In this document: positions 1,020-47,033 of the stretch, in pieces
How the letters are laid out: each line of letters opens with the position of its first letter
How positions within the stretch are numbered: the stretch's first letter is position 1
NCBI GenBank assembly: GCA_021737405.1
Contig: JAIPEG010000003.1
Span: forward strand, 186,001 to 250,000
Source of the DNA: Bacteriovoracaceae bacterium
GTDB taxonomy: Bacteria; Bdellovibrionota; Bacteriovoracia; Bacteriovoracales; Bacteriovoracaceae
Direction: 5' to 3'
Length of the DNA: 64,000 nucleotides
Made by a program: the position numbers and the translations under genes
Notes under the pieces: generated by a model
The model's database searches: none
What the model was told of the DNA's origin: nothing
Seen by the model: the letters and a program-made list of their open reading frames with translations, nothing else

Positions 1020-1037
1020 CAATCGTAGGAGAAGAAC

Positions 1038-2706: not shown

Positions 2707-2810
2707 CTTAATGTGTCTTTAGGAGAAGACCATTATTTTCGAGACGAGGAAATCTTTTATGATGGAAACAACATTGACGAACGATCTATTGCTAGGCCTT
2801 TAGCACAAAA

Positions 2811-3266
2811 CTAAAAGCTCCTTTTAAGTTGATCACAACTTGTTAGGCCAAGAAAGTGTTTTATGACTTCGCCATCTCTAAATACAAACATCTGGGGACT
2901 AAGTCCCCTCTCTATTTTAAAGTTGCTTAAAACTTCTTGATTGGCCTGGTAAACTCTCGCACCAAATACCTTTTTCAAATTTAGTTTTTGGGCCTCTCGC
3001 CAAAGACTCAATTTCACACCGCCAAAGCCCATCGCGATCAAAGAAAGACTATTGCCCAAACAATTAAATTCAGAAACCTGTTGCTTACACGCTGGACACT
3101 CTGGTTTAAAGAAGAAGAAAATACCTGAGCCCTTCGAAAGTTCTTTTATATTTTGTGTTGAGTTACCACTCAGCTCTGCCACGCTCTGGGCTTCTATAGA
3201 AAAAGAATAAAGCGATAATCCAATAAGAGTAAGAGAGAGTATGTGGACTTTAATTGCTGAGGTCAT
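2811..3266 (-). CDS. Exported thioredoxin-like protein (CPAC)
   Basis: A 151-residue protein with a signal peptide (residues 1-26) and a thioredoxin-like segment 'FFFFKPECPACKQQ' holding a CPAC redox pair. A further Cys pair ('FNCLG', 'LTSCDQL') lies outside the active site. The overall shape resembles TraF/ResA-like periplasmic thioredoxin folds, shorter than DsbC. It overlaps the tonB gene by 17 bases and is translated after it. It may keep cysteines of neighbouring exported proteins reduced, for example the Cys-x-x-Cys in the plug of the TonB-dependent receptor across the divergent promoter; that link is speculative. Confidence 0.65.
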   Translation of the reverse strand: MTSAIKVHILSLTLIGLSLYSFSIEAQSVAELSGNSTQNIKELSKGSGIFFFFKPECPACKQQVSEFNCLGNSLSLIAMGFGGVKLSLWREAQKLNLKKVFGARVYQANQEVLSNFKIERGLSPQMFVFRDGEVIKHFLGLTSCDQLKRSF

Positions 3267-3837
3267 ACTTTAGAGGAATATTAAGTGTTACTTTCTTCCC
3301 CATAGTCAAAGGCAGTGGTTTAAATTTAGAAATTTCCTCGACTAGAGAAAGGGCTGCCTTATTTAGACTTGAAAACGGAGAAGGACGTTTGATATGGATA
3401 CCGTGAAAGTTTCCATTTTGATCTATTTCAAGACAAATCTCAACCGAGCCTGCCTGTTTAAGCATAAGGGCCATTTTTGGATAATATTTTTTAGCTTCGA
3501 TATGCTTTCTAAGCTCTAAAAAATACTTATTCAAGAGTTCATCTCCCTTTACTTTAGAAACACCTTCTTGAACAACTGTGCTCTTTTTAATTGGTTGCTG
3601 TTGGAATTTTTTCTTTATTGTAGAAGTAACTTTATTTACGATTTTTTCTTTCTTTATAATATCTATTTTTTTCTCAAGCTCCCTAACTTCTGATTCATTG
3701 AGCTTAATGGTTACATGAATGACCTCACTGCTAGATTCAACTCTAGGCCTAAAAGAGTAATCCTTTTTTAGAACAGAGATATCTGAAAAAAACAAAAGGC
3801 CAAAGTGAATGAATAAACTAATAAAAAAAAATTTCAT
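3250..3837 (-). CDS. TonB-like energy-transducing protein
   Basis: A 195-residue protein with one N-terminal membrane helix (residues 2-18), a charged linker full of Lys/Glu (residues 40-95), and a C-terminal TonB domain: 'YFLELRKHIEAKKYYPKMA', 'GSVEICLEIDQNGNFHGIHI', then 'LNKAALSLVEEISKFKPLP'. TonB links the ExbBD motor to outer-membrane receptors. The linker is Lys-rich rather than the Pro-rich linker of E. coli TonB. ExbB and ExbD are not in the window. The gene is divergent from a lipoprotein plus TonB-dependent receptor, so it is probably dedicated to that receptor. Confidence 0.8.
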   Translation of the reverse strand: MKFFFISLFIHFGLLFFSDISVLKKDYSFRPRVESSSEVIHVTIKLNESEVRELEKKIDIIKKEKIVNKVTSTIKKKFQQQPIKKSTVVQEGVSKVKGDELLNKYFLELRKHIEAKKYYPKMALMLKQAGSVEICLEIDQNGNFHGIHIKRPSPFSSLNKAALSLVEEISKFKPLPLTMGKKVTLNIPLKYDLSN

Positions 3838-3881
3838 AGATCTTGCACTTTTAAGAGGTACGGATTAAAACATACACTAAA

Positions 3882-3896
3882 TGCAAGTCAGTTGCA
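3882..3896. promoter_or_regulatory. Inverted repeat between tonB and the receptor operon
   Basis: A perfect 5-5-5 inverted repeat (TGCAA, five bases, TTGCA) lies in the 79-base gap between the divergent tonB and lipoprotein genes, 9 bases before the SD of the latter. Its position suits a repressor operator controlling both directions. It does not match a Fur or Zur box that I can recognise. Confidence 0.35.
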
Positions 3897-3916
3897 ACAA
3901 CAACCAGGAGAAACTG

Positions 3917-4600
3917 ATGAATTTTCGTTACCCATTGGCCTTATTTTGCACCTTAATTCTCAACACTTGTGCTCAAGAACCCTCTCCCGTAGTTGCTGCA
4001 CAGTCAGGCTTTACTGGTATTGCCGATCTAAATCCCGCCGGCCCTATGACAAAGAATGCTGTGGTATATAAAGGATCAGACTTCTTCGGCCAGTCATGCG
4101 GCTTGGCCGTCTCTCTTATTGAGGAAAATGGAGAACACCTTTATCTTACGAAGGTTAACTATAAACTCCACGGCGAGACCCTTCCGGACGTAGAGTCTAC
4201 AATCTATCGATTTGACCTTGCGTCAAATTCATATAGTGACGCTGAAACAGGCAATGGAAACATTACTTTAGGTGCTGCCATCTTGAATGATGGATCAATA
4301 GCAGACCTTAATCTTTTAAGTGTCTATGAGTCCCAAGGAAGACTAGTTTATTCCCTAAGAGTAGAAACTACAGCTTCTTCTGCTTCAAGTTTTGATGAGG
4401 CCCTTGAAAAAGTTGTCGATGACCCTCAAGAGCTGGCCGCCTACGCTTCGACTTTAGATCAAATTAGTCGCATTGTTTTTAAAATTAATCATGCTGGCCA
4501 CTACGATGCCACGGGCTGCCTAAACCTAAAACTTGATTCTGTCTCTAAAACTGACTTTAATGTAGGACATCACGACGATCATGATCATGATCATGACTAA
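3917..4600 (+). CDS. Putative lipoprotein with His/Asp-rich tail
   Basis: The start is set at ATG 3917 because AGGAG lies 6 bases upstream and a signal sequence with a lipobox-like 'LNTC' begins there; an upstream in-frame ATG at 3881 has no RBS. The 227-residue product is not from a family I recognise. Two internal Cys ('GQSCGL', 'ATGCLN') may pair. The last residues are a His/Asp run ending 'HDHDHD', a metal-chelating tail. The tail is encoded by a GATCAT repeat that also supplies the start codons of the next gene, a TonB-dependent receptor. A role as metal-binding partner of the receptor is inferred. Confidence 0.65.
   Translation: MNFRYPLALFCTLILNTCAQEPSPVVAAQSGFTGIADLNPAGPMTKNAVVYKGSDFFGQSCGLAVSLIEENGEHLYLTKVNYKLHGETLPDVESTIYRFDLASNSYSDAETGNGNITLGAAILNDGSIADLNLLSVYESQGRLVYSLRVETTASSASSFDEALEKVVDDPQELAAYASTLDQISRIVFKINHAGHYDATGCLNLKLDSVSKTDFNVGHHDDHDHDHD
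4577..4594 (+). repeat. Three tandem GATCAT hexamers at a gene junction
   Basis: Three perfect GATCAT units encode the His-Asp tail of the upstream lipoprotein and, in another frame, three alternating ATG codons (4581, 4587, 4593) at the start of the receptor gene. Gain or loss of one unit would keep both frames, changing the length of the metal-binding tail and the number of start codons together. Confidence 0.8.
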
Positions 4601-6725
4601 GAAGTTTTTGGCATTCCTTCTCTTCATGCTCCAAGGACTAGCTTGGGCAGAGTATTCAACAGGTGAGATCCTGGTAAAGGGAGGCAGCGAAGCTGTCTCC
4701 CCTGTGCTCAAATCTAAATCATTTAAAACCGAAACCGTCTCCCCCGATAAATTTGATGATCCTTTTAGGCAAAGCTTAGCTGACCTTGTGAAAGATCAGG
4801 TCGGCGTTGATACTCAGGTCTACTGTGCAAATTGTGGTGCCAAGAGATTAACAATTAATGGATTGAAGGGAGAGCACACTTCTATTCTCATAGATGGAAT
4901 TCCTCTGCACTCGGCCGTGAGTAGCTTCTATGGCGTTGATAGTGTCCCTCTCCTGGGTCTTAGTAGTGTGGAAGTCATGAGAGGAGCAGGGGCAGCACTC
5001 TCAAACCCCGAATCCATTGGTGGAACATTAAATCTCATTACCGTCGACCCCCTTAACTTCACCTCAAAGATTAGAACTTCTTTTGGTGTGAATGATATTG
5101 GAAACAGGCAGTCTCAAAATTATAATGTTCTCACTGGAAAAACCGCTCATTCGAAGAAGTGGGGCTTTGTTGTAGGCGGCTCATTCACAAGGAATGAGAC
5201 ATGGGATGAAGATCAAAACAAGGTTGCCGAACTTCCTCAACGCGTTGGAAAGAGCATGCTAGCGAAAGCGAGACTACTTTTAGGTGAAAAACTTGATGTG
5301 AATTTGCGGTTAGGCTATGCCGATATTGAAATTCTTGGTGGCTTTCATAATCCGAAAAGGCCAACGAGAGTTCGCCCTTTGGCCGCCTCTCAATCTGATT
5401 TCAATGGCGGAGATACTTTTGGTGCTTATATTGGTGATCCCGCAAAGATAACCGATTGGGTAAACCTTGATCGATTGGAAAGTGCACTTTCAGTTAGCAC
5501 CCATTTAGGTGACTCAACACTGCTCGAATGGAAAACAGCTCATGCAAGACAAGAGCAAAAATCAATTTACCAACATGGTTTTGACTACGCTCATATCAAT
5601 AACCTCTTTCTGACAGATATCAATATTCAACATTTTTTAAATGGATCTACTAGTGTAAAGGGAGGCATTTTTGTAAAGGATGAAAGACTTCGCTCTGCTT
5701 CTTCGACACTCTTTGAGCGTTACGCTGCCTCAGATCCCAATGACATAAAAAAAGATAATTTTGATTATAGTTCAAAGGCTTTTTATACAGAACTCTCTTT
5801 TATCAAAAATAAATTTGAATTTAACTTTTCTCTTAGGGCCGATCATATCGATATCAACTGGCTAGAATTAACAAATGAAATCAAAGAATGGGTCCTTGCT
5901 CCTCGGGTAAATCTTGTTCACAATATTAGTGATCACCTTACTCAACGATTTTCATATGGACTTGGCTATAGAGCGCCCTTGACTTTTTTTGAATCGGGTC
6001 ATGGTAATGAAGAAAATGGTTATGAAGTGGCCATTACCCAATTGGAAAAAGCGCACTCTTTTGTCTACTCACTCAGTTACAACACACCAAGGGGCTACGC
6101 GACAGCTGGTGTTCACTACACTCATCTCATGAATATGGCCTATGGCCTTGAGCAATTCAATCAGCCTATCAGATATAAAAACAGTGTCGAAGATTACGAC
6201 GTCCTAGTAAGTGACCTTTTAATCGGCCATAAAGTAAGCGAGGATTGGCTTTTAGAAGCTTCTCTTGAATTTTTTAATTATCAAGGAGGTTACAAAAGAC
6301 GTCTACCAACTGCGGCCATTGAAAAAAGGCTCTCTTTGATCTCTACTCTAAATCTTGGAAAATGGAGCCACCGTTTTTCAGGCCAATATATTCCCTCTCG
6401 TAATCTCTCTAACTATGGACGCTATTACGATCATTATAGAGTTAGAAATCAAGGGCTAGAACCAATACTAGACACTAACCTCCCTAGAAAACTCCAAGAA
6501 GCACCAGGCTTCTTTTTATTTGACACAAACGTTAGCTATTCTTTCAACGAAACCTTGAAATTGAATTTTTCCATTCAAAACTTACTCGACTATACTCAAG
6601 CAGGAGAGGGAGACTCACCCGCAACTTGGCATTGGCACTTTAATCATGCTCACTATGATGGCCTTCATACCTGGGGTCCAAATTCTGGCCGACAGTTTGC
6701 TTTAGGGGTTGAATACATCTTTTAA
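4593..6725 (+). CDS. TonB-dependent outer-membrane receptor, probably metal
   Basis: The chosen start (third ATG of the repeat) gives a 710-residue protein with a clean signal peptide, 'MTKKFLAFLLFMLQGLAWA'. The plug domain follows: 'LADLVKDQVGVD', a Cys-x-x-Cys ('YCANCGAKR'), 'ING', 'SILIDGIPL' and 'VEVMRGAGAAL', all standard receptor motifs. A 22-strand-type barrel follows and ends in 'FALGVEYIF'. A late segment is His-rich ('WHWHFNHAHYDGLH', about 30 residues from the end). With the His-tailed lipoprotein upstream and tonB opposite, a metal or metal-chelate substrate is likely; which metal cannot be told. The gene overlaps its neighbour by 8 bases. Confidence 0.88.
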   Translation: MTKKFLAFLLFMLQGLAWAEYSTGEILVKGGSEAVSPVLKSKSFKTETVSPDKFDDPFRQSLADLVKDQVGVDTQVYCANCGAKRLTINGLKGEHTSILIDGIPLHSAVSSFYGVDSVPLLGLSSVEVMRGAGAALSNPESIGGTLNLITVDPLNFTSKIRTSFGVNDIGNRQSQNYNVLTGKTAHSKKWGFVVGGSFTRNETWDEDQNKVAELPQRVGKSMLAKARLLLGEKLDVNLRLGYADIEILGGFHNPKRPTRVRPLAASQSDFNGGDTFGAYIGDPAKITDWVNLDRLESALSVSTHLGDSTLLEWKTAHARQEQKSIYQHGFDYAHINNLFLTDINIQHFLNGSTSVKGGIFVKDERLRSASSTLFERYAASDPNDIKKDNFDYSSKAFYTELSFIKNKFEFNFSLRADHIDINWLELTNEIKEWVLAPRVNLVHNISDHLTQRFSYGLGYRAPLTFFESGHGNEENGYEVAITQLEKAHSFVYSLSYNTPRGYATAGVHYTHLMNMAYGLEQFNQPIRYKNSVEDYDVLVSDLLIGHKVSEDWLLEASLEFFNYQGGYKRRLPTAAIEKRLSLISTLNLGKWSHRFSGQYIPSRNLSNYGRYYDHYRVRNQGLEPILDTNLPRKLQEAPGFFLFDTNVSYSFNETLKLNFSIQNLLDYTQAGEGDSPATWHWHFNHAHYDGLHTWGPNSGRQFALGVEYIF

Positions 6726-7100
6726 AATAGTATACATGTTTAATTTTTTCTCCCTTCTTCTCTTAGGTCCAGCTCGTACATATTATAAAACCCTGGCGTA
6801 GTACCTATGCTTTAGCAATATATCCCATAGCGAAGAGATATATTTCGAGTAAACCTAATCAAATAGTGGAATATATTTTTATCCTTCTAGCCTCCTTTTA
6901 TTCAAGACATTTCTTCCCTCTTGTAAGCTTTAAAAAAAAATCTAGAGGGGACACTCATTGACTAGTTGACTATTTTGATTGCTTTAAAAGTTTTTGACAA
7001 AAATCTCCAATTGTTTTGGTCTAACTTAGAAGTACAAATTTTTAAAAAATAAATAGTGATTGCCGATAAGTACTGTTCAACCAATCAAAGGCAAAACAAA
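6726..7100. other. Intergenic region before the M48-ABC1 fusion gene
   Basis: About 375 AT-rich bases with no convincing gene on either strand. It holds clustered TTGAC elements at about 6957-6998, including a full TTGACA, but no well-spaced -10 box follows (the best, TCTAAC behind a TG, is 20 bases away). The promoter of the downstream gene is presumably here but cannot be fixed. No clear terminator follows the receptor gene. Confidence 0.4.
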
Positions 7101-10100
7101 ATGGGTATTAAGAAAAAAATTGAGCAAGAATTCTTAAAAGTTGACTTAAAAGAGTACAAAGAAAGATTTAGAAATAATTTAGGTGAGCTTCTTAACCCAC
7201 CAGAATTACCTATTCGACCAGATATTGAAGACGCTATAAATGCCATTGAAACGATCGTCATGGATCTAGCAGGGCCTTGGATTGAAAAACAAGCAAACAA
7301 ACTAGTTATAAGTATATTTTCATCAAAAGAGAAAAACGCTTTTGCTCTTGCGAACTCGGAATTAACAAAAAGTCCTCCTGTTTTTGATGAACGCCCTTAC
7401 ATGCTTAGGGAAATTTGGGGGGCGCAAAAAAATAATCAGCCAGTATTCGAAATTGGTGTAACCGTAGGACTCTTGCAAGGAAATTTTACCACTGATGAAC
7501 TCGCATTTGTTTTAGCACATGAACTTTCTCATCTTATGGAAGGCCATGTTCACCATGAAAATGATTACGATTACCGCTCAAACTTCTATTCTTCTCAAGT
7601 TGAAGAACTCGCAGCAGACACTGCTGCCATTCAATTAATGATGGGTAAATATAATCCAAAGGCGGCTTACACTGCCTTAAATAAAATACTATCTGAAAAT
7701 GAGGATGAAGAGAAGGAATCAGTGAACCCTCTCAATGAAGACCCATTATGTAGTCAAGATATCCTAGACGGATTAAAAAATGGAATAAGTTCTCATCATC
7801 ACCCAGGAGTTCGTTTAGGTTCAATCCAAACATATTTAAAATATTTACAATTTCAAGGTGAATGGAAAAGTATTGAAAATGAAGTAGGTACCAAAATCCC
7901 AAGTTTCCCCTACGATGAAAAATCACCAAAGGAAGAAACTAAGATTGTAAAAAAACTAATAACCAATTTTTTTGAAAATTTGGAGGAATTATTCTTTGAA
8001 GGCGAAATTTTTCAACCCGAAGCATTTTCTCACTTTGCTGGAAGAGATGATTATTTTTTAGTTATAGAGACTATAGAGGCAGACGCCTATCATTACTGTT
8101 GTCAATTTGTGGAAAAACTTAGTCATATAAACCGGACAAAAACAGAAAAATTCTTATCCTTTTTGTTGTTTCTGACCTGGTGCCACCGTTACCATTCTGA
8201 TTCAGAAATAACTAGCGATCAGAGCAACATACTATCATCTTTTCTTAATGAAACAACAGAAGGACTGACTGTCGAAGACTTTGAACAGAGTCAAGACTTT
8301 ATAGATTGCTTACAAAAATATCACAGAAGATTTTTAGACTATTGCTTTTCAAAATCCTCTGAATGTTTCTTTAAAGATTCCACAAAGCATTTAGATTCTT
8401 GGCGAAATTTTCTAGAGGTTTTTATCACCACTTCTCAAAAAGAGATTAAGACTAGTTCTACTATAGAGACATTAACTCACTATTACCAAACTTACAGAGC
8501 ATTTGAAACGTCCTTTACCTTCTCTTCATTAATTCGAGAAGTTTACACAGATTTAGATAAAAATATTGATACTAACCAGTTCACTAAAGATTTTTTCTCT
8601 CTTATACCAGGAGAATCCCATCAGCATTTCACTCAGATTCTTTCACACTTTAGACCTTATGCTTTACAAAAGAATAGGGAAGAAAATGATGAAGGCATTT
8701 ACGAACCCCTACCATCTCAGGTTAGTATATACAATTCACTTATCGCTCAGTTTTCCTCCTGGCCAGGAAATGTATTAGGACCAGGGAGTACTATCGAAAT
8801 CATTGAATGTTTAAATTTTTATTCTGGATTTTTAGAATCACTAAATGATTGTACAAGAGAGGGAGACCTTGAATATCCGACTTTGGGTCTCTTACATTTT
8901 CAAAACTGTTTTTTCCATTCTAGTTACATAACAAAAGGTGAACATGATAGTACAGGATATTCTTATAATTATCTTTTCAAACAATATATAAATCATTCCT
9001 CAAAGCAATCACTAATAAGTTCCGAGAATCTTCACCAATTGAGTCTATTTCTAGCGTTGTACGATCCAAGTGAAAATATGTTTATAAATCTATCTAAAGA
9101 ATCGGAAATTAAATGGAGACCTTTTTTAACGAAAACAACTCTTGAGGATATGAAAAGATTTCTTGAAGATCTTCCAAGTTGCCTCGATAATTTGGAGGCA
9201 ATTGATGACTATGGTCAACTCACTCTAAAATTGAATTATTTTGTAAATAGTTTTCAATTACTTTCAGCATGGACTCATGCAAATGAATCCAAAGAACTAT
9301 TCACTAATGCAGCATATCTGAAAAAGATGATCTTTTCTCTTAGAGAAATTGTAGCTTTAAAAGAAAGACGGGAAGAGCACCCAAATCACAACGGATGGGA
9401 AGAGAGTATAATTTTAAGCCGATATTCTCAAGAAACCTTCTCAGAAGCTTTAATTACACTCATTGACAGTGTCGACTATAAAGACTGGTTTCAAGTATAT
9501 ATGTTGTTTTGTGAATTTGGTTTTAGTAAGTCTCATTTTTCTGAGGATCAATATATTAAAACCTCAAAGTACTTGTTTGAAGTTCTCAAAAATGAATTTT
9601 CAAGAGACGAACTTATCGTTGCCCTAACAGACAAAAAGCTTAGAAATTTGTTACACTCTCATGAATTTTGTGAACTTCTACTCACATACATTAAAGAGAA
9701 ATGCCCAATAGAGGATCGTGATTTTCTAAAGAGCACTTTTAGAAAAATAAATAATGATCTCCATCTTGATGTTCAATTTACTGAAGTCTTCCTTGACCTC
9801 AGAAATCAGGTTGTTCAATACTACCAAATACAGCCAAATGAATTGGAGTCCGTTTTCCCTCCAGACAGAAGATCCCTTACCGAAAAATTAATTGGTTTTT
9901 CAATGAAGACTCGCTACTTCAGTGCAATATGTTCTGTATTTCGAAGTCGTGAGTTTACTGAACAATTTGAGTTAATGTCTTATTTAATGGGACGCATTGA
10001 TGTAATCCCTGAATTTATTAAAGAGGTCCATAACGATGTTTTAACAGAAACAGACGGTCGCTATGGACTACTTGGTCCCCTGCTAAACTTCAAGGCCGAG

Positions 10101-11501
10101 TTGAATCATCGATCAACTGTAGAGAGGGCGTATATTTTAAATTGCTTAATTACAGGTTACGGCGGCATGGCACAAGATGAAGAAGGTCAAAGAATCCTCA
10201 TCGATGATATAAAAGAATCCTTTCCTGATGAACAAAAAGAACTTGTTGAAAATATGGCACAGGCCCTTATCGAAACAGATGGTCATGATTGTTCACTCTT
10301 TCTCTCTTATATATTCGCTCAACCTCCTAAAGGTAATCTTATTTCGAAAACACAAGTCTTTGGAGCAATCTTAGAATCATTTGGTGTTCCTGGCCAAAAA
10401 CTGGCTCAATACTTGGCCTTTACAAATAGCTTTAAAGAGTATTACGAGAGCTTCAAGGACTTTCAGGATTCAGTAAACCCTGTTAATCATTTTGAAGTAC
10501 TATCCTTGATTAAAGCAAGATTTTCTAATAGTTGGCCTGATCATTTAAAGATCATTAAAACAATCGGCAGCGGAACTGTAAACCTAGCTGTTTTAATAAA
10601 AAACACCCAAACAAATGAAAATCAAGTATTATCTATCGCCAGAAAAGGAATCCAGGACAAGACCCTTATGGATTTTGACCGTTTTAAATCATTCATTGAT
10701 CATTTGGATCGAATCAGTCATGGGAAAAAAGAATTCCGCTTTATTAAAGGTTTAGTCGACGTCATAAAAGAGTCCGTTGAACTAGAGTTTGATAAAGTAA
10801 ATTCAGCAAAAATGCAAGAAATGGCATTAGAGCACTACTCAAGTCGTGACCACAAAGTTGAGACGGTTCCAGTCTATGAAAATTTTGATCACGCCTTATT
10901 AATGGGTCACGCTTTTGGTGAAACAGCAAAAGTTATACTTGAACAAGACTTGGATAAGTATGTTTTGGCCATGACTCATTTATTTGAAGCAGAATGGAAT
11001 GTTTTAAGTCATCTCCTGTCAGAATCTGAAGTAGAGTCTTCATCATTTGCAAACCCGGACATGCACGATGGCCAAGTCATTGTAAATGATAACCAAGTAT
11101 TTGTTATAGACTTTGGTCAGGCCGTAGAGGTTACTAAAGAGGATTGTCTTGAGGGTTTTGCAATTGCTAAAATAATCAGTGGTCTCTTCTCTCCTGAAAA
11201 GGCACATGGTATTCTATCCAATGAAACAAACCTTAATGCCAATAAGATAACGATTTCAGATCTTACTGAAGTACTGGCCTTTGATGATAAAATGGAGCGT
11301 TTTGTAAATCTCCTATCCATTACTGGTGAGAGAGATGAAAAGATTGCACTCGGACCTATTCACTGGGTATTGGCGGTCAATAGATTGTATCAATTAAGTG
11401 AAAAGATTGATGTCTCCTTTGAGGCAAAAATTACTAAATTATATCTAGCTCAAAACTCTCTTTTAGAGAATTTATCAACTTTTTTTAATAAAGCATCTTA
11501 A
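7101..11501 (+). CDS. M48-type zinc metallopeptidase fused to UbiB/ABC1 kinase-like domain
   Basis: The ATG at 7101 has AAAGG 10 bases upstream and gives 1466 residues; an in-frame GTG at 7056 is less likely. There is no signal peptide or membrane helix, so the protein is probably cytoplasmic. Residues about 60-270 form an M48 domain: HELSH at 140-144, third zinc ligand E169 in 'EELAAD', and a late 'HHHPGVRLGSI' matching the M48 His-Pro...Arg element. Residues about 270-1080 are helical and match nothing I know. Residues about 1090-1440 resemble the UbiB/ABC1 atypical kinase: 'VPGQ' (1096-1099) where KxGQ is expected, a Gly-rich loop GSGT (1156-1159), K1182, 'DMHDGQV' (D1320-) aligned to the DFHPGN loop, and D1337-Phe-Gly. 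Function unknown. The architecture is new to me. Confidence 0.8.
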   Translation: MGIKKKIEQEFLKVDLKEYKERFRNNLGELLNPPELPIRPDIEDAINAIETIVMDLAGPWIEKQANKLVISIFSSKEKNAFALANSELTKSPPVFDERPYMLREIWGAQKNNQPVFEIGVTVGLLQGNFTTDELAFVLAHELSHLMEGHVHHENDYDYRSNFYSSQVEELAADTAAIQLMMGKYNPKAAYTALNKILSENEDEEKESVNPLNEDPLCSQDILDGLKNGISSHHHPGVRLGSIQTYLKYLQFQGEWKSIENEVGTKIPSFPYDEKSPKEETKIVKKLITNFFENLEELFFEGEIFQPEAFSHFAGRDDYFLVIETIEADAYHYCCQFVEKLSHINRTKTEKFLSFLLFLTWCHRYHSDSEITSDQSNILSSFLNETTEGLTVEDFEQSQDFIDCLQKYHRRFLDYCFSKSSECFFKDSTKHLDSWRNFLEVFITTSQKEIKTSSTIETLTHYYQTYRAFETSFTFSSLIREVYTDLDKNIDTNQFTKDFFSLIPGESHQHFTQILSHFRPYALQKNREENDEGIYEPLPSQVSIYNSLIAQFSSWPGNVLGPGSTIEIIECLNFYSGFLESLNDCTREGDLEYPTLGLLHFQNCFFHSSYITKGEHDSTGYSYNYLFKQYINHSSKQSLISSENLHQLSLFLALYDPSENMFINLSKESEIKWRPFLTKTTLEDMKRFLEDLPSCLDNLEAIDDYGQLTLKLNYFVNSFQLLSAWTHANESKELFTNAAYLKKMIFSLREIVALKERREEHPNHNGWEESIILSRYSQETFSEALITLIDSVDYKDWFQVYMLFCEFGFSKSHFSEDQYIKTSKYLFEVLKNEFSRDELIVALTDKKLRNLLHSHEFCELLLTYIKEKCPIEDRDFLKSTFRKINNDLHLDVQFTEVFLDLRNQVVQYYQIQPNELESVFPPDRRSLTEKLIGFSMKTRYFSAICSVFRSREFTEQFELMSYLMGRIDVIPEFIKEVHNDVLTETDGRYGLLGPLLNFKAELNHRSTVERAYILNCLITGYGGMAQDEEGQRILIDDIKESFPDEQKELVENMAQALIETDGHDCSLFLSYIFAQPPKGNLISKTQVFGAILESFGVPGQKLAQYLAFTNSFKEYYESFKDFQDSVNPVNHFEVLSLIKARFSNSWPDHLKIIKTIGSGTVNLAVLIKNTQTNENQVLSIARKGIQDKTLMDFDRFKSFIDHLDRISHGKKEFRFIKGLVDVIKESVELEFDKVNSAKMQEMALEHYSSRDHKVETVPVYENFDHALLMGHAFGETAKVILEQDLDKYVLAMTHLFEAEWNVLSHLLSESEVESSSFANPDMHDGQVIVNDNQVFVIDFGQAVEVTKEDCLEGFAIAKIISGLFSPEKAHGILSNETNLNANKITISDLTEVLAFDDKMERFVNLLSITGERDEKIALGPIHWVLAVNRLYQLSEKIDVSFEAKITKLYLAQNSLLENLSTFFNKAS

Positions 11502-11517: not shown

Positions 11518-11823
11518 ATGAAAAAAACAGTTTTAACATTAATGATCATTAGTTCACTATCAGGCTTTGCAGCAGACCGTACTAAAGATAAAAAATCCGC
11601 GACTATTGCAAAAGAGGCACTCAAATATATCCATGAAAATGCCCCAGATGCAAAAGTCGCAAAGAAAGTTCATGAAGCGCTGCTAAAAATGTGTACTAAG
11701 AAACCACCTATGGGTTGCTGGTTCCGTGGCGGCTCTTCAATAACTTTTCAACAACTTGATAAAGATGGCCAAGAGGAAGGTAAAATATATGATCTCAAAA
11801 AATGGGTAAGAGATAATATTTAA
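11518..11823 (+). CDS. Small exported protein downstream of the fusion
   Basis: A 101-residue protein with a signal peptide ('MKKTVLTLMIISSLSGFAA', cut near residue 19) and a mature part of about 80 residues, with helical first half and two Cys ('KMCTKK', 'MGCWFRGG') that could form one disulfide. An AGGAGAAGC RBS lies just before the ATG and only 16 bases separate it from the fusion gene, so the two are almost surely co-transcribed; a strong terminator follows. No family recognised. It may be a periplasmic partner, but the fusion itself has no export signal, so direct contact would need the precursor form. Confidence 0.7.
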   Translation: MKKTVLTLMIISSLSGFAADRTKDKKSATIAKEALKYIHENAPDAKVAKKVHEALLKMCTKKPPMGCWFRGGSSITFQQLDKDGQEEGKIYDLKKWVRDNI

Positions 11824-11845
11824 TCAATTCAAATGAATAATTATC

Positions 11846-11880
11846 GACTCATGCAGGTTTTATTTGCATGAGTCTCTTTT
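11846..11880 (+). terminator. Rho-independent terminator of the fusion operon
   Basis: A perfect 10-bp stem (GACTCATGCA / TGCATGAGTC) with a 9-base loop is followed by TCTTTT and another T-rich run. It lies 23 bases after the small exported protein gene and closes the two-gene operon. Confidence 0.9.
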
Positions 11881-11904
11881 AATTTTTAAGGCTTTTATAT
11901 TTGC

Positions 11905-12330
11905 CTAATAACCAAGGGCTGCCAACTTCTTATACATATCAGATAAACCTACTACTTGATATCTTGGTCCACCAACGATGATCTTACCTTCTTTATAAGT
12001 AAAAAAAGGCTCTTTAGCTTTTTCAATTTTAATCGACTTTATCTCTTTACAAATCTTAGGTCGCTTCTTATCTTCTACAAAGTAGCGAATGGTTTGAAGG
12101 ACTTCTAGATAGTTCTGACGAACATGTTCCATCTCATTTATATCTTCATACGCTTTCCAATCAACAATGAGTTCAGGTTCCGTTGCGCAAAGTCCCTTGT
12201 AAATAGTAAAGTAATTTTTAAGGCCTTTCAACATTTCAGTCTTGGCATCTTCACCCTTAGCAACGTCATTACTAGATACTGGTGCGAGGAAAAAGGTAAA
12301 AAGAGACATTAGTATTATTGTTTTTCTCAA
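11905..12330 (-). CDS. Exported protein of unknown function
   Basis: A 141-residue protein. The start is a TTG with GGGAGAA 8 bases upstream. A signal peptide spans about residues 1-20. The mature part has two Cys ('GLCATEP', 'KICKEI'), a helical middle, and a basic strand-rich end ('FFTYKEGKIIVGGPRYQVVGL'). I recognise no family. It is followed leftward by the terminator hairpin of the opposite operon, which has only a weak T-run in this direction. Together with 12379-12828 it forms a pair of small exported orphans. Confidence 0.6.
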   Translation of the reverse strand: MRKTIILMSLFTFFLAPVSSNDVAKGEDAKTEMLKGLKNYFTIYKGLCATEPELIVDWKAYEDINEMEHVRQNYLEVLQTIRYFVEDKKRPKICKEIKSIKIEKAKEPFFTYKEGKIIVGGPRYQVVGLSDMYKKLAALGY

Positions 12331-12378
12331 AATAATTCTCCCAATAAAAGTTTATACAATATTTTATCCTTTCTAATT

Positions 12379-12828
12379 TTATCGAATTTTACTCTGTAAG
12401 AGACTACTAAAGCTCTTACCTGGAGAATTCGCAATAGTGATCATAATCTTCCCAGACTGGGCCTTAACCCGCCATACAGAATCTGTAACTGCTGTAATTT
12501 GTACTTCCTTATATTTTTTTAATTTTTGCTTAAAGGATGAGCTTTTACAATTTGAGAAAATCTCCTCAAGAACTGTATCTAATTTTTTCTTTAACCTATC
12601 AAATTGATTAAATTTTGACTGGATTTCCAAGTTTTCTAATTCGCTATAAGTAATATTGAACTTTAATTTCGTATCACAATTCTTATGAGCTGACCGTTGT
12701 GCTTTGGTTATGCTCCTCTCAATTCTTGATTTATCCTTTTCTATACCTGCTTCTAATTCAGGACTGGAAAAAACTTGCTGACCCAATAAAAGAGAAAAAG
12801 CCCCAATAAAAAAAAGATTCTTATGCAT
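12379..12828 (-). CDS. Exported protein of unknown function
   Basis: A 149-residue protein with a signal peptide (residues 1-21) and an AAGGACG RBS before the ATG. The mature part is mainly helical and highly charged, with two Cys ('KNCDTK', 'SNCKSS') and a C-terminal strand region 'VWRVKAQSGKIMITIA'. No family is recognised. It lies 48 bases upstream of the gene at 11905-12330 on the same strand, and the two may share a transcript. Confidence 0.6.
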   Translation of the reverse strand: MHKNLFFIGAFSLLLGQQVFSSPELEAGIEKDKSRIERSITKAQRSAHKNCDTKLKFNITYSELENLEIQSKFNQFDRLKKKLDTVLEEIFSNCKSSSFKQKLKKYKEVQITAVTDSVWRVKAQSGKIMITIANSPGKSFSSLLQSKIR

Positions 12829-12969
12829 ATTACGTCCTTATCTCAAAAAGTTAATTATATGCTACAAATTATACTCATAATTCCTTTTGGGTAAAGATTC
12901 TTACTTTTGTAACTAGATCAAGAATGAAAAACTAAAAGACTCGGACTTAAAAATTAAAGTATTCTTATC

Positions 12970-13902
12970 CTACAAAAGCTTTTTCCCAAACCAATTGAGG
13001 AGAAACTTTTCCTTAACAATGAGTTCTAAAGCTCCACGAACATGTCCCTTGTCTAAAATGAAGGTTTTTGGGTGAACTCCTTCGGCCTTTATTTTCTTCC
13101 AAAGAATCCACTGATTTCGAGTAGGGACGATCTTATCTTTATCGGAAATAACCATCGCTACATTTTCAACTTTTGGGTTATTAATAATGAGGTTGGGGTC
13201 TAAAAAAAGAAAACCCCTAAGATAAGTCTCGTATCTACTGAGGCTTCTTATTCCTAGGGCCTCCATAAGACAGTTTCTAAAATCGATCAGATCTTCACGT
13301 TGAGTATCCTTGAGAAGGCTTGGAGTGTCTCCTCCTGCGACTGCCATAAAGAGGGCCTGGAAACGATGATCTAGCCCATAGAGAATCGCAGAGTGAATGC
13401 CTCCGAGGCTAGCTCCAACGAGTCCCATTTTATTCGTCCTAAGTGCCGGCAATTCTTTTTTCAAACCCTTAATGGCAAAAAAGGTCCCAGCGAGATCCCT
13501 TCTTATCTTTCTCTCAATCTTAGAGGCACTCTCCTCATCAAAAGAAATCTCTTCAGCGCGGTTAATCGGAACGAGTACGGGATGACCCTCTTTTGCTAGT
13601 CGATGGGCAAGACGCCTCTCAAGTATCGTCACTCCATCAATATTGGGAGATAGAACGACCAGTGACTTTAGGCTTAATCGAATAGGTTTATAGAAGAGAA
13701 AATTAAATGAGAGTTCTTCTTGAGTATAGCTTTCAACAATGGCGAGATCTCCCTTATTTACTCTATAATACCGCTTTTCTTTTATGACCTCACCCAAATC
13801 AAAAGACTTTGCTTCAAAGTCTTTAATGAGTTCTTTAATATTTTTAAAAGCGAAAACATTAAGTGGTGAAATTAAGATAAAAATGATTACTAGGTGCTTC
13901 AT
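12970..13902 (-). CDS. Exported alpha/beta hydrolase
   Basis: A 310-residue protein with a signal peptide ('FILISPLNVFA', cut near residue 18). It has the alpha/beta-hydrolase nucleophile elbow GASLGG with Ser165, a likely acid in 'VISDKDKIVP' and a likely catalytic His in 'LDKGHVRGA'. It may act on an ester or peptide in the periplasm or outside the cell; the substrate cannot be told. A 13-bp inverted repeat covers the region just upstream of the start codon and touches the SD, so translation may be controlled. Confidence 0.75.
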   Translation of the reverse strand: MKHLVIIFILISPLNVFAFKNIKELIKDFEAKSFDLGEVIKEKRYYRVNKGDLAIVESYTQEELSFNFLFYKPIRLSLKSLVVLSPNIDGVTILERRLAHRLAKEGHPVLVPINRAEEISFDEESASKIERKIRRDLAGTFFAIKGLKKELPALRTNKMGLVGASLGGIHSAILYGLDHRFQALFMAVAGGDTPSLLKDTQREDLIDFRNCLMEALGIRSLSRYETYLRGFLFLDPNLIINNPKVENVAMVISDKDKIVPTRNQWILWKKIKAEGVHPKTFILDKGHVRGALELIVKEKFLLNWFGKKLL

Positions 13903-13908
13903 AATCCC

Positions 13909-13943
13909 CTCTGATGAGAGAGTTTACACTTCTCTCATCAGAG
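13909..13943 (-). promoter_or_regulatory. 13-bp inverted repeat over the RBS of the hydrolase gene
   Basis: CTCTGATGAGAGA and its exact reverse complement are separated by 9 bases. In the hydrolase mRNA this would be a stable hairpin whose 3' arm ends in the GAG of the AGAGGGG SD, 6-7 bases before the ATG. It could hide the RBS, or as DNA be a repressor site. There is no T-run, so it is not a terminator in either direction. Confidence 0.6.
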
Positions 13944-13971
13944 AAAATCTAAGATTATAAAAGAAATTCTA

Positions 13972-13994
13972 TGTCTTATATCAGGTCGTCTTTA
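13972..13994. repeat. 23-base direct repeat, copy 1
   Basis: Identical over 23 bases to 14608-14630 (core CTTATATCAGGTCGTC). It lies 70 bases upstream of the leftward hydrolase gene. Read on the minus strand it contains ATATAAGACA, which might be part of a promoter, but no -35 box is well spaced. Confidence 0.85.
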
Positions 13995-14056
13995 GAATTT
14001 ATAATGTTAACGTTCATCTTTTAAACTCTTTAATCGAATTTGCAGAGAACACGCCC

Positions 14057-14088
14057 CCCCTTAGTATTTAAGTCAAATCTCTAAGGGG
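14057..14088. repeat. Inverted repeat in the 13.9-14.2 kb spacer
   Basis: CCCCTTAG and CTAAGGGG are separated by 16 bases, preceded by extra Cs. There is no T-run on either side. It lies between the two copies of the 23-base repeat, in a 293-base spacer that holds no gene I can support. Possible protein-binding site or RNA hairpin of unknown role. Confidence 0.4.
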
Positions 14089-14195
14089 ATGCAAATGAGT
14101 TTGGGAATAATGGAGAATAGGTTTATTAGGTGATTTTTTTGTATTTGTTCATTAGAGATATCATAATAAATACGACGACATAATATGTATGTTTT

Positions 14196-14579
14196 TTATA
14201 TTTTAGTGTGAGTCATTAAAGCCCACTCTTCATCGCTCATGTCCACGAATTCTAGTTCAACTTCATCTCCTTTGGCACTAATTAATTTTTCGGGCCAAAT
14301 TCGTCGAAAAGCATAAGTAAAAAGTTCAACTAGTTCATTATCGGTTAAAGGGAAGTCTTGGCTCGCGAATGACTGTATCCTGCCACTTGGGTTGGCGATT
14401 AGGGCGTCGATAGAAATGTATAGCCAACCTAGGTCACCATTTTTTTCTGCAGCTAATTGCATGTTGCGAATATCTCCCTTAAAATTTCCTAAGTCAGACA
14501 TGGGGTTTTCAGTATTGACAGCTCGACCCATTGTTAATTTTTGGAGATAAAACTTAATTAATTCACGATTCATCTTCAT
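14196..14579 (-). CDS. Hypothetical protein flanked by 23-base repeats
   Basis: A 127-residue soluble protein without signal peptide. It begins 'MKMNRELIKFYLQKLTMGR' and has a helical, acidic C-terminal part ('ELVELFTYAFRRIWP', 'VDMSDEEWALM'). No family recognised. Two ATG codons lie close together (14579 and 14573), neither with a strong SD. The gene sits alone between long spacers and between the two copies of a 23-base direct repeat, one copy being 29 bases upstream of its start. This could mark an inserted unit or simply a shared regulatory site. Confidence 0.55.
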   Translation of the reverse strand: MKMNRELIKFYLQKLTMGRAVNTENPMSDLGNFKGDIRNMQLAAEKNGDLGWLYISIDALIANPSGRIQSFASQDFPLTDNELVELFTYAFRRIWPEKLISAKGDEVELEFVDMSDEEWALMTHTKI

Positions 14580-14607
14580 TATATAATTCCATAAGGTTTG
14601 GTTACTT

Positions 14608-14630
14608 TGTCTTATATCAGGTCGTCTTTA
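14608..14630. repeat. 23-base direct repeat, copy 2
   Basis: Exact copy of 13972-13994, same orientation. It lies 29 bases upstream of the gene at 14196-14579. A shorter, partly matching version (TGTCTTAT...GGTCGT) is at 28877-28892 upstream of a leftward FecR gene. Confidence 0.85.
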
Positions 14631-14688
14631 AATAGAGTGTCCACACTTAATATTTTGAATGAAATTAAGTGGGTTCTATTTAGGAAAT

Positions 14689-15315
14689 TTAATCATGTCT
14701 CTTAGCAGAAGTATTCTTGGCGCGTATAAGTTCAAGTTTTCGATGATGCTTACTATCATCTTCAAACCTTTTTCTCTCTTCATCACTATAAGGGACATCA
14801 TAAATATCGATTAATTTTAACATTCTCTCGATGTTCACCCCTGTGTCCTGAAGAGTTAAAAAACCCGAATGTTCACTATTAATCACTCGACCATAACGAG
14901 ACATAAATGGTCTTAAGGATCGTATGATTTGCTTACTCACCAACTTATTTTTAAGCTTATAGTTAACCAATTTATAATCATAATTTTTGGGGATACTTTT
15001 AAATTCATCTACTGATAACAATTCTGTAGGTTCATAGCGAACATCTCTTGTACTATAAATGACGAGACCATCTTCAAAGGGGATGCGAGTAAAACCATGG
15101 CGATAAAGAGTTAAACTAAACAGGTTATCTATCTTCTGAGAATCGCCCTCAAATTTAATAGGCTTAAACTTCGTATCCTTTATATCTTCAAGGAGATAAT
15201 GATTCTTTTTAGTTATTTCAGAAATTTTTTCAATACAATTCACGAGAGAATTACAGTCAAGTGTCGCTGAATGAGCAGAAAAAAGAAAGAGTGATCCTAA
15301 AATTAAAAATTTCAA
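14689..15315 (-). CDS. Exported protein with secretin N-domain-like region
   Basis: A 208-residue protein translated from a TTG start behind GGAGG. A signal peptide covers residues 1-16. The central part ('DNLFSLTLYRHGFTRIPFEDGLVIY') resembles an N0-type domain, and residues about 115-170 resemble a secretin N1 domain: a 'VNYKLKNKLVSKQIIRSLRPFMS' strand-helix, 'GRVINSEHSGFLTLQDT', then 'NIERMLKLIDIYD'. The secretin barrel itself is absent, and the end is a charged tail. It might be a free N-domain partner of a type II/IV secretin encoded elsewhere, or a shortened relic. The resemblance is by eye only. Confidence 0.55.
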   Translation of the reverse strand: MKFLILGSLFLFSAHSATLDCNSLVNCIEKISEITKKNHYLLEDIKDTKFKPIKFEGDSQKIDNLFSLTLYRHGFTRIPFEDGLVIYSTRDVRYEPTELLSVDEFKSIPKNYDYKLVNYKLKNKLVSKQIIRSLRPFMSRYGRVINSEHSGFLTLQDTGVNIERMLKLIDIYDVPYSDEERKRFEDDSKHHRKLELIRAKNTSAKRHD

Positions 15316-15503
15316 ATAAACCTCCAGGTTAATTGAAAATTATTCTAACTGACCGAAACAGATCTTCAAAGACAAATGCTCTAACCTTACTCTCTCTTTC
15401 CTCAAATTTTACCTGATGTTCACAATTCATAAGCGCTGTCTAGAAAGTAACCAGTAAAGTGGCTCTAACCCATTGAAATAACTTCATTTATTTGGTCTAT
15501 AAA

Positions 15504-16889
15504 ATGCATAAAAACCCAATAGCCATGGTATTACTTAAAAAAGGTCAAAGATTAGGCCTTACACTTCTATTCATATTCTTCTTCGCAGCTCCTATTGGAT
15601 CTCAGGAAGAAGCACCTCTGGCCAATAAGGTAGAAGAGGTCATCGTCATCGATGAGGATCGTCTCACTCTCCCTCGCCTTAATGAATCAAGTTTTTACCA
15701 AAGAATTGACCGCAAAACCCAAAAAATTCTCAAAGATATGGGTGGCAGTTTTACTGCTGAGGAGAGGTCCTCTCTTGAAAAGGCGCGACGAGCAGTTCTT
15801 AAATTTTTAAAAGAGCAAAACCCCTATCACCATGTCAAAGAACTTTTTGTTAAACACGGACTAGGTGTTGGTATTACTGCCGGGATAACAGAGTTCACAA
15901 CCATCATCGTCTTACCTGCTATCTTTACGGCCATTGATTTGCCGCAACTTGCTGTGGTGTCAGCAGCAACTCCGAGCTTCTTAGCATCAGTACCAGCGTT
16001 TCTCGGTATAAAATCCATGAGGATGAAGAGAAAGCTTGCAGGAAAACTAGGAATCACGAATATTGGACATCTCGATAAATTAAGAAATAGTATTTTGGGG
16101 TATTCAAGTAAGAATCGTCTCTTATCAGTGATCATTGCAAGAAGTAAGAGAGAGCTTGAAATCAATGTTATAAAGAGACCCTTTTCAAGATTTAGAAGTT
16201 CTCCCATGGGCAATATTGTCGACCTCTCTGAATTAAAAGATATTGTCTCTCAACAAGAAGGAGCTCAGGTCCTTGAGCTCATAAAGGCGGCCTCTCATGA
16301 AGATGATGCCCTATTCTCCTACCTTCTTCTCAAGCAAATCCAGAGGAGACCAGAGAGTTTTAATCATTTTAATGAGCTTATTAAAAAACGTGTGACAGAA
16401 CTTCCCGTCACCGAACACCAATTGACCCAAATTCTTATCACTCATGAAAAGAGAGAAATCATCAAAACGAGAATGATAAAAGTAAGAGAATTAAAGGCCT
16501 CTCTTTTAAGTAAATTAGAATCGATTGAGGATAAGTTAGTGATAAAGGAGTGGAGTAATTCAATTAATGTTGACCTTCAAAATCTCGACTTTGATATCCA
16601 GCGTTTTGAATATAACCTCTTAGCGCAAATCCACGCTAAAGGAGACATCACTCAATTTGATCTAACATCATCTCATACAAAGGTCGTTGAGAGAATGAAG
16701 GAGATACGCCTCCATCTTGAAAAAATAGAATCATGGATAGAAGGAGAGGAAAGTCTTGAGATAAAAAAGGTCATCTACAAACTTAAAGAATTTAATCGTT
16801 TGTGGATTCCTTTAGAAATAAGATTAACCCCGCGTGGTGATTGTTATGGCTGGATGAAGTCCGTCCTCAACCATTCGGGGCTCTTATAA
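15504..16889 (+). CDS. Membrane protein of unknown function
   Basis: The ATG at 15504 gives 461 residues; a TTG at 15492 and an ATG at 15525 are alternatives and none has a clear SD. An N-terminal hydrophobic helix (about residues 16-32) is followed by an acidic segment, then two hydrophobic helices (about 120-170: 'LGVGITAGITEFTTIIVLPAIFTAI' region and 'AVVSAATPSFLASVPAFLGI'). The remaining 270 residues are charged and helical, with coiled-coil character near the end. No family recognised. It ends against the App1-like gene on the other strand with no spacer. Confidence 0.6.
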   Translation: MHKNPIAMVLLKKGQRLGLTLLFIFFFAAPIGSQEEAPLANKVEEVIVIDEDRLTLPRLNESSFYQRIDRKTQKILKDMGGSFTAEERSSLEKARRAVLKFLKEQNPYHHVKELFVKHGLGVGITAGITEFTTIIVLPAIFTAIDLPQLAVVSAATPSFLASVPAFLGIKSMRMKRKLAGKLGITNIGHLDKLRNSILGYSSKNRLLSVIIARSKRELEINVIKRPFSRFRSSPMGNIVDLSELKDIVSQQEGAQVLELIKAASHEDDALFSYLLLKQIQRRPESFNHFNELIKKRVTELPVTEHQLTQILITHEKREIIKTRMIKVRELKASLLSKLESIEDKLVIKEWSNSINVDLQNLDFDIQRFEYNLLAQIHAKGDITQFDLTSSHTKVVERMKEIRLHLEKIESWIEGEESLEIKKVIYKLKEFNRLWIPLEIRLTPRGDCYGWMKSVLNHSGLL

Positions 16890-46998: not shown

Positions 46999-47033
46999 GA
47001 ATTAGTCCTTTAAAATGGGTGGATAATCCTAGT

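What the first reader, a model, noticed from the sequence alone, without database searches (positions are those of the whole stretch)
7101..11501. A 1466-residue protein joining an M48 zinc peptidase to a UbiB/ABC1 kinase-like domain
The N-terminal HELSH (140-144), E169 and HP-R elements form a complete M48 core, and the C-terminal third has the Gly loop, Lys, catalytic-loop and DFG elements of ABC1 kinases. Some 800 unknown residues lie between. I know of no described fusion. In plant plastoglobules an M48 peptidase (PGM48) and ABC1K kinases occur together, so a functional tie between the two families has precedent. The fusion could be a cytosolic peptidase controlled by its own nucleotide-binding domain.
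Basis: partly seen in the sequence, partly recalled or inferred. Interest (0 to 1): 0.85.

Follow-up and report, generated by a model that had tools for sequence, protein, structure and literature searches.

The report
Giant M48 peptidase–ABC1 kinase-fold fusion
The gene encodes one very large protein that joins an intact-looking zinc protease to a degenerate relative of the UbiB/COQ8 kinase family, and it belongs to a diverse, mostly exported protein family, for which I found no earlier description, scattered through the phylum of the Bdellovibrio predators.

Summary
The fusion is real and recurs. Window 7101-11501 (1466 aa) has a complete M48 core (HELSH 140-144, E169, H232/R238; Pfam E 7e-7) and a C-terminal ABC1/UbiB domain that Pfam misses. 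Family profiles (COQ8B 5.8e-24), hhalign of the window's subgroup against UbiB (prob 98) and a confident model whose best PDB match is Rv3197 show it. Four of five relatives scanned exceed both Pfam cut-offs in one ORF. At least 34 of 368 genomes of the phylum hold a matching ORF of 1000 aa or more (capped listing); one named relative is a Bdellovibrionales MAG. Catalytic Asp, DFG Asp and ExD remain, with KLAQ for KxGQ, so pseudokinase is likelier. Of 42 full-length members, 39 have a signal-like N-terminus and 31 keep HExxH; the window protein has HExxH but no signal. Inferred mechanism: a BepA/LoiP-type peptidase head on a helical scaffold, docked or gated by a ligand-binding pseudokinase. 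My paper searches found no such fusion.

The parts
7101..11501 (+). whole gene, 1466 aa, M48-helical-ABC1 fusion; possible alternative start GTG 7056
7137..8060 (+). M48 zinc peptidase region, residues 13-320
   Evidence: Pfam PF01435 7e-7; blastp to relatives within residues 13-371; subgroup profile A12 hits M48 structures 3c37 and BepA
7518..7532 (+). HELSH zinc-binding and catalytic motif, residues 140-144
7605..7607 (+). E169, third zinc ligand by alignment
   Evidence: invariant in A12, 8 rows
7794..7814 (+). H232...R238, the HP-R-like element of M48
   Evidence: H232 and R238 invariant in A12
8061..9977 (+). helical middle, residues 321-959; residues 780-920 modelled well, 400-700 poorly
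9978..10370 (+). family-specific helical region just before ABC1, residues 960-1090
   Evidence: alignment A6, phylum search, model
10371..11168 (+). ABC1/UbiB-like kinase-fold core, residues 1091-1356
10398..10409 (+). KxGQ motif as KLAQ, residues 1100-1103
10563..10586 (+). nucleotide loop IGSGTVNL, residues 1155-1162
10632..10634 (+). S1178 where the beta-3 (VAIK) Lys should be
10779..10796 (+). ExD motif within ELEFDK, residues 1227-1232
   Evidence: E1229 is one of four nearly invariant columns of A7
11052..11075 (+). catalytic loop NPDMHDGQ (D1320 kept, Asn replaced by Q1325)
11109..11117 (+). DFG, residues 1337-1339
   Evidence: Asp in 54 of 54 rows with a letter there
11169..11498 (+). 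C-terminal helices after the kinase-like core, residues 1357-1466

Best explanation
The protein belongs to a family of very large, mostly exported proteins of the phylum Bdellovibrionota. A typical member has an N-terminal BepA/LoiP/HtpX-like M48 zinc peptidase, a long helical scaffold, and a C-terminal divergent ABC1/UbiB domain. Shown by computation: the two domains, the single-chain fusion and its recurrence. Shown by sequence: in the window copy the peptidase core is intact, while the ABC1 domain has lost the beta-3 Lys and the catalytic-loop Asn but keeps the catalytic Asp, DFG Asp, ExD, and KLAQ for KxGQ. Inferred: the M48 head is an active zinc endopeptidase; the scaffold positions substrate; the ABC1 domain is a pseudokinase that binds a ligand (nucleotide with weak or no turnover, a lipid, or a protein partner) and docks the protein or gates the peptidase, rather than phosphorylating substrates. 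Most members probably act in the envelope or outside the cell. The window copy lacks the export signal and is probably cytosolic, or exported by another route.
For: M48: Pfam above cut-off; A12 profile to 3c37 (3.2e-10) and BepA (1.8e-7); 3c37 and BepA at Foldseek ranks 1 and 5 for the N-terminal model. ABC1: A11 against UbiB A10 by hhalign, prob 98, E 2.3e-13, 343 columns; A7 profile finds six ABC1-family sequences first, COQ8B 5.8e-24 to 7cy2 8.1e-17, the next kinase at 1.9e-4; model pLDDT 86.7, pTM 0.85, best PDB match Rv3197 8.3e-7. In A7 (23 rows) only four columns reach 90%: the Q of KxGQ, the E of ExD, the catalytic Asp and the DFG Asp. Fusion: at E 0.01, Pfam M48 in 17 and ABC1 in 15 of 26 rows; both over cut-off in one ORF in 4 of 5 proteins and in L136. 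Recurrence: 48 ORFs of 1000 aa or more in 34 of 368 genomes among the listed matches (count). Pseudokinase: in 54 rows with letters, beta-3 Lys in 14, Asn in 43, DFG Asp in 54. Export: 39 of 42 full-length members against 1 of 28 UbiBs.
Against: The window's own C-terminus gets no Pfam ABC1 hit at E up to 10, and the 8-row subgroup profile alone finds no kinase in the PDB (3 chance-level hits, best 0.024). The model was built on an alignment that includes relatives with recognisable ABC1 domains, so it is not independent of them. Foldseek TM-scores are low (0.35 and 0.44 for Rv3197), perhaps because the query includes the helical region; the M48 fold match has E above 0.01. One relative with an HEYVH motif (L126) gets no Pfam M48 hit at E 0.1. 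Retention of both Asps in nearly all rows suggests that nucleotide or metal binding still matters, against a purely structural role. 11 of 42 full-length members lack HExxH, so proteolysis is not the only role in the family. Nothing here links the ABC1 domain to peptidase activity.
Confidence: 0.5

Rival explanations
1. The ABC1 domain is an active ATPase or kinase that powers or switches the peptidase, essentially the first reader's idea of a cytosolic peptidase controlled by its own nucleotide-binding domain.
For: Catalytic Asp (52 Asp, 2 Glu) and DFG Asp (54) in 54 rows with letters; 14 of 56 aligned rows have beta-3 Lys, Asp, Asn and Asp together, and 7 of the 42 full-length members have these and HExxH. 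E. coli UbiB, yeast Coq8 and COQ8A have ATPase activity stimulated by quinone-intermediate analogues (PMC7263595, passages). The window copy has no signal-like N-terminus.
Against: In the window the beta-3 Lys is Ser and the Asn is Gln, and the window's subgroup has S or N and Q at these places wherever it has letters. Most members look exported, and ATP is scarce outside the cytoplasm (general knowledge).
Confidence: 0.2
2. Exported members are predation factors delivered into prey periplasm or cytoplasm, where the peptidase attacks prey proteins.
For: The phylum is that of the Bdellovibrio predators; 39 of 42 full-length members have signal-like N-termini; patchy, diverged and multi-copy distribution (4 ORFs of 1000 aa or more in G027).
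Against: No expression, secretion or lifestyle data for any of these genomes; the window copy has no signal; BepA, a nearest solved relative, serves the cell's own envelope. A 2025 proteome of Bdellovibrio predation names one M48 protein (Bd1874, M48B) and no kinase in its main text (PMC12546842, find).
Confidence: 0.2
3. Envelope quality control: a BepA-like protease-chaperone whose helical and ABC1 parts recruit outer-membrane or lipid-linked substrates.
For: Closest solved M48 relatives are 3c37 and BepA; BepA is a periplasmic M48 peptidase acting on LptD (PMC8423444, start of abstract in listing).
Against: Patchy for a housekeeping role: P0001 finds nothing in the six other genomes of its genus, and a long family ORF shows in 34 of 368 genomes of the phylum (capped listing). 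The window copy is unsignalled.
Confidence: 0.2
4. A gained accessory gene that is decaying, with no kept function in this genome.
For: G+C 0.348, against 0.405 upstream, 0.359 just downstream and 0.405 further on; its gene neighbourhood is not kept in the genus; nearest relatives lie in other taxonomic families; signal missing; kinase residues lost.
Against: The frame is open over 1466 codons, the M48 core is intact, and subgroup residues (KLAQ, PDxHxGQ, DFG Asp) are kept at about 30% identity to relatives. The kinase changes are shared by the whole subgroup, so they are not fresh decay.
Confidence: 0.1

Closest known systems
ABC1/UbiB/COQ8 family (COQ8A, COQ8B, Rv3197, E. coli UbiB)
   Same: Kinase-like fold, KLAQ for KxGQ, ExD, catalytic Asp, DFG; best profile and fold matches
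   Different: Beta-3 Lys and catalytic-loop Asn lost in the window; fused to a peptidase; no C-terminal hydrophobic helix (highest family value 1.43, while 25 of 28 UbiBs reach 1.79 or more); most family members look exported
BepA (beta-barrel assembly-enhancing protease, M48)
   Same: M48 head with HExxH and Glu followed by a helical part; among the closest solved structures
   Different: BepA chains are 439-492 aa with a TPR domain (recalled); here about 640 residues of helices and an ABC1 domain follow; window copy has no signal-like N-terminus
3c37 (putative M48 zinc peptidase) and HtpX
   Same: M48 core; 3c37 is the nearest profile hit; HtpX matches over a short stretch only
   Different: Solved chains without ABC1; HtpX is a membrane protein (recalled)
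Plastoglobule PGM48 and ABC1K proteins of plants
   Same: Both families occur in one compartment (search listing only)
   Different: Separate proteins in an organelle; kinship with this fusion not tested

Membership tests
Peptidase family M48 | HExxH zinc motif | tested here: met
   HELSH 140-144; Pfam PF01435 29.7 bits, cut-off 20.3
Peptidase family M48 | third ligand Glu with the following Asp (E169, D173) and the H-x-R element | tested here: met
   E169, D173, H232, R238 invariant in A12, 8 rows
Peptidase family M48 | M48 fold | tested here: met
   Profile hit to 3c37 3.2e-10; the N-terminal model's first Foldseek hit is 3c37, prob 1.00 but E 0.012
Peptidase family M48 | zinc-dependent proteolysis | not testable with these tools
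   needs an assay
ABC1/UbiB | protein-kinase-like fold | tested here: met
   (model built on an alignment with clearer ABC1 relatives)
ABC1/UbiB | KxGQ motif | tested here: inconclusive
   KLAQ: K and Q kept, G replaced by A
ABC1/UbiB | ExD motif | tested here: met
   EFD within ELEFDK; E1229 nearly invariant in A7
ABC1/UbiB | beta-3 VAIK Lys | tested here: not met
   S1178; Lys in 14 of 54 family rows
ABC1/UbiB | catalytic Asp and DFG Asp | tested here: met
   D1320, D1337
ABC1/UbiB | catalytic-loop Asn (HxGN) | tested here: not met
   Q1325
ABC1/UbiB | common descent with UbiB | tested here: met
   hhalign A11-A10 prob 98; A7 to COQ8 and Rv3197; relatives over Pfam ABC1 cut-off. Kin by descent; two catalytic motifs are not met, so I do not call it a working ABC1 kinase
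BepA | NCBIfam BepA equivalog model | tested here: not met
   No BepA match listed for P0001 at E up to 0.1
UbiB orthologue (ubiquinone regulator) | NCBIfam UbiB equivalog score 487.55 | tested here: not met
   No match listed for P0001; 70.7 bits for the relative L053

The most novel reading that the evidence does not exclude
A family, in the phylum of Bdellovibrio, of exported proteases that stay silent until their ABC1 pseudokinase meets a ligand found only in the target compartment (for example ATP or a quinone lipid of the prey): a compartment-sensing, pseudokinase-gated protease. The window copy would be a cytosolic offshoot.
Probability: 0.1. Interest if true: 0.85.

Novelty: new variant of a known kind. 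Interest (0 to 1): 0.6.

Why it matters
It adds an architecture, undescribed as far as I could search, that joins two families whose functions are still partly open: M48 envelope peptidases and ABC1/UbiB 'atypical kinases'. If the exported members are real, they place a UbiB-type kinase fold outside the cytoplasm, where ATP is scarce. Since 14 of 56 aligned rows keep all four kinase residues checked while the others lose the Lys, and 31 of 42 full-length members keep HExxH, the family offers natural sets to test which half needs catalysis.

Tried and rejected
Chance or mis-assembled fusion: rejected, since relatives in many genomes carry the same order. Complete active kinase in the window: rejected on S1178 and Q1325. 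Hidden signal peptide upstream: the three frames of 6726-7160 show none joined to the gene; a short hydrophobic ORF near 6736 ends in a stop and I treat it as chance. Conserved operon partner: none found; the only neighbour cluster that reached 4 genomes mixes response-regulator-like and sensor-like ORFs (the annotation is by eye). The small gene 11518-11823 has no Pfam match over cut-off. Virus origin: no relative in viral contigs (pattern-based, close relatives only). Family outside the phylum: hardly tested; two pattern scans of genome contigs, one empty, one with 2 loci; the genome search was run only inside the phylum. The middle's resemblance to exportins and importins has E above 0.01 and low pLDDT, so I claim only 'helical'. 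Tree: quick method, several long branches; 53 family rows (3 of 56 were too short) and 14 other ABC1 rows. The family label needs 2 changes, because the window's second ABC1 protein falls among the family rows, so one origin is likely, not proven.

Rows dropped or set apart: 58 proteins were gathered (26, 32 more; count); 56 have a C-terminus to align and 54 have a letter at each kinase position, not always the same 54. The 42 full-length rows are those over 1300 aa without G309c, which is cut at its 5' end. G182 and G177 (about 700 aa, no M48) are inside the 58, not inside the 42. Two long ORFs from the ABC1 search (in L090 and L092) look like other protein kinases by eye and were left out. 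Of 29 UbiB ORFs found, 28 served as export control, 16 in A10 and 13 in the tree.
Full report
OBSERVATION. Window 7101-11501 (+) is one open frame of 1466 aa. HELSH lies at 140-144. E169, D173, H232 and R238 are invariant in an 8-row alignment of the window's closest M48 relatives (A12). Pfam finds M48 at 7e-7 and nothing credible for the C-terminus. The kinase-like elements are present by alignment, except the beta-3 Lys, which is S1178.

THE FAMILY. Among 98 genomes searched with P0001, 8 matched: the window's own, a two-contig copy (G090), two other long ORFs (G094, G068) and four ORFs of 573-586 codons (G009, G010, G016, G017). Those four lie at the places where the Pfam ABC1 model scores 1.7e-58 to 7.5e-67, so they are ordinary ABC1/UbiB proteins. 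With G090's piece as query, 13 of 368 genomes of the phylum matched. The Pfam ABC1 search over 59 genomes also rang in long ORFs of 1549-2014 aa. I then aligned the region just before ABC1 (A6, 20 rows) and searched 368 genomes: 286 have a match. In the capped listing the matches fall into two kinds: UbiB-sized ORFs that match mostly around KxGQ, and 48 ORFs of 1000 aa or more in 34 genomes, the window's included (count); one of the 48 (G088) matches only the part before KxGQ. In the window's taxonomic family, five other genomes carry such ORFs in that listing (G003, G019, G023, G027, G031), and two more (G035, G128) have pieces at contig ends. G003 is of the window's genus; its copy is of another subgroup.

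TAXONOMY. Two loci have names: a Bdellovibrionales MAG (the contig of G284) and 'Deltaproteobacteria bacterium' RIFCSPHIGHO2_02_FULL_40_11 (the contig of G090). Bdellovibrionales belongs to phylum Bdellovibrionota, and the genome search lists G284 and G090 in the window's phylum, hence my reading.

IS IT ABC1? Four lines, not fully independent. (1) Profile A7 (23 rows) finds six ABC1-family PDB sequences first (COQ8B 5.8e-24 down to 7cy2 8.1e-17); the next kinase is at 1.9e-4. (2) The window's subgroup alone (A11, 8 rows) aligns with 16 UbiBs (A10) over 343 columns, probability 98, E 2.3e-13; against this, the same subgroup profile finds no kinase in the PDB by hmmsearch. (3) The model of window residues 940-1466 has pLDDT 86.7 and pTM 0.85; Foldseek's best hit is 5yk2, Rv3197 (8.3e-7), and the further listed hits are protein kinases. 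The sequence of 5yk2 is one of the six found; that Rv3197 is an ABC1-family protein is otherwise recalled. (4) Relatives carry Pfam ABC1: 15 of 26 rows at E 0.01, up to 2.3e-31 in L091. In A7 four columns reach 90% identity and no more, and they are UbiB signature residues: Q1103 of KxGQ, E1229 of ExD, D1320, D1337.

IS IT ONE FUSION? Both Pfam cut-offs are exceeded in one ORF in L053, L089 (10324-15027), L091 and P0005 and in L136. In L050 and L043 ABC1 falls just under (22.2 and 22.5 bits for 22.9); L126 has ABC1 just under and no M48 hit at E 0.1 in spite of its HEYVH. A quick tree of 67 ABC1 domains puts 51 family rows together (SH-aLRT 94) apart from 13 UbiBs; G182, G177 and the window's second ABC1 protein lie between, weakly placed. 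The fewest changes on it are 8 for HExxH and 5 for the beta-3 Lys, so both active sites seem to have been lost (or regained) several times. The window falls with G262 and G284 (supports 87 and 89), not with G003 of its own genus.

RESIDUES. In 54 rows with letters: KxGQ K 45, Q 53; beta-3 Lys 14; catalytic Asp 52 (plus 2 Glu); catalytic-loop Asn 43 (Gln 10, Lys 1); DFG Asp 54. Of 56 aligned rows, 14 have Lys, Asp, Asn and Asp together; 7 of the 42 full-length members have these plus HExxH, and 24, the window among them, have HExxH without the Lys. HExxH is present in 31 of 42. So the family runs from proteins that look active at both ends to proteins that have lost one end or both. The window keeps the peptidase end.

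EXPORT. A hydrophobic N-terminal stretch (12-residue Kyte-Doolittle mean of 1.75 or more in the first 82 residues) is present in 39 of 42 full-length members against 1 of 28 UbiBs. Exceptions are the window, G305 and G357; G357 shows a signal-like stretch further in, behind an overlong start. This is a crude measure, not a signal-peptide predictor. The window protein begins about where the mature part of its relatives begins.

N-TERMINAL MODEL. Residues 1-960 gave mean pLDDT 61.6 and pTM 0.41. Within M48, blocks of ten score 77-93 over residues 31-80, 111-150 and 171-200, and lower between (E169 lies in a block of 68). Residues 781-920 score 76-94. The rest is low and helical. Foldseek ranks 3c37 first and BepA fifth, with E above 0.01 and no hit under 0.001. 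The M48 subgroup profile finds 3c37 3.2e-10, BepA 1.8e-7 and an HtpX homologue 2.7e-5.

CONTEXT. G+C is 0.348 in the gene, 0.405 upstream (339-6725), 0.359 just downstream (11518-16889) and 0.405 further on. In seven stretches fetched around the homologues of two flanking genes in the genus, no long family ORF and no two-sided neighbourhood is seen; the upstream pair 3881-4600 and 4581-6725 stays together in two of them (L173, L174), and one stretch (L171) is a short contig. No neighbour family recurs convincingly around family genes. This fits horizontal gain or an old accessory gene.

MECHANISM. Shown: domains, order, residue changes, lack of a signal. Established: M48 peptidases use HExxH plus Glu for zinc (recalled); UbiB, Coq8 and COQ8A have ATPase activity stimulated by quinone-intermediate analogues (PMC7263595, passages); BepA is a periplasmic zinc metallopeptidase acting on LptD, with a regulatory mechanism under study (PMC8423444 and PMC7950410, titles and starts of abstracts in the listing). 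Inferred: an active zinc peptidase held by a helical scaffold and gated or targeted by a ligand-binding ABC1 pseudokinase. Nothing here tests the gating.

LITERATURE. Searches for the combination listed no paper that I recognise as describing an M48-ABC1 fusion; I saw the top 6 to 15 rows of each. The passages of PMC1262709 that I saw name ABC1 architectures with membrane segments, a RIO1-like and a Usp domain, not a peptidase. PMC11656739, a comparative study of Bdellovibrionota, has no occurrence of M48, AarF, ABC1, UbiB or kinase in its main text (find). PMC12546842 names one M48B protein, Bd1874, and no kinase (find). Only open-licence papers are held, and no supplements were searched.

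VERDICT. A real, recurrent fusion of two known families, apparently undescribed; the window copy has an intact-looking peptidase and a degenerate ABC1 domain. New variant of a known kind, interest 0.6.

Noticed in passing
window 47019-48575 (+): A second, separate ABC1 protein of 518 aa, Pfam ABC1 5.7e-24, beside a gene that looks like a thioredoxin reductase by eye; five same-genus genomes hold ABC1 ORFs of 512-556 codons.
   Followed up: partly
L155 1132-3255 (-) and L156 1772-3865 (+): ABC1 proteins of about 700 aa with a signal-like N-terminus and no Pfam M48, in the single-contig genomes G182 and G177 (ABC1 6.9e-27 and 2.5e-29): an apparently exported UbiB-fold protein without the peptidase.
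   Followed up: partly
L133, L141, L143, L144: Family ORFs of 2465-3350 aa with the ABC1 part and no HExxH in the first 450 residues; what fills the extra length is unknown.
   Followed up: no
L089 5025-15027: Two members of the family side by side in divergent orientation, sister rows in the tree.
   Followed up: no
window 11518-11823 (+): Small 101-aa gene with a signal-like N-terminus by eye, 16 bases after the fusion gene; no Pfam match over cut-off.
   Followed up: partly
L048 6340-10750: In G210 the family gene is split over two overlapping frames, so it looks broken or mis-sequenced; described only.
   Followed up: no
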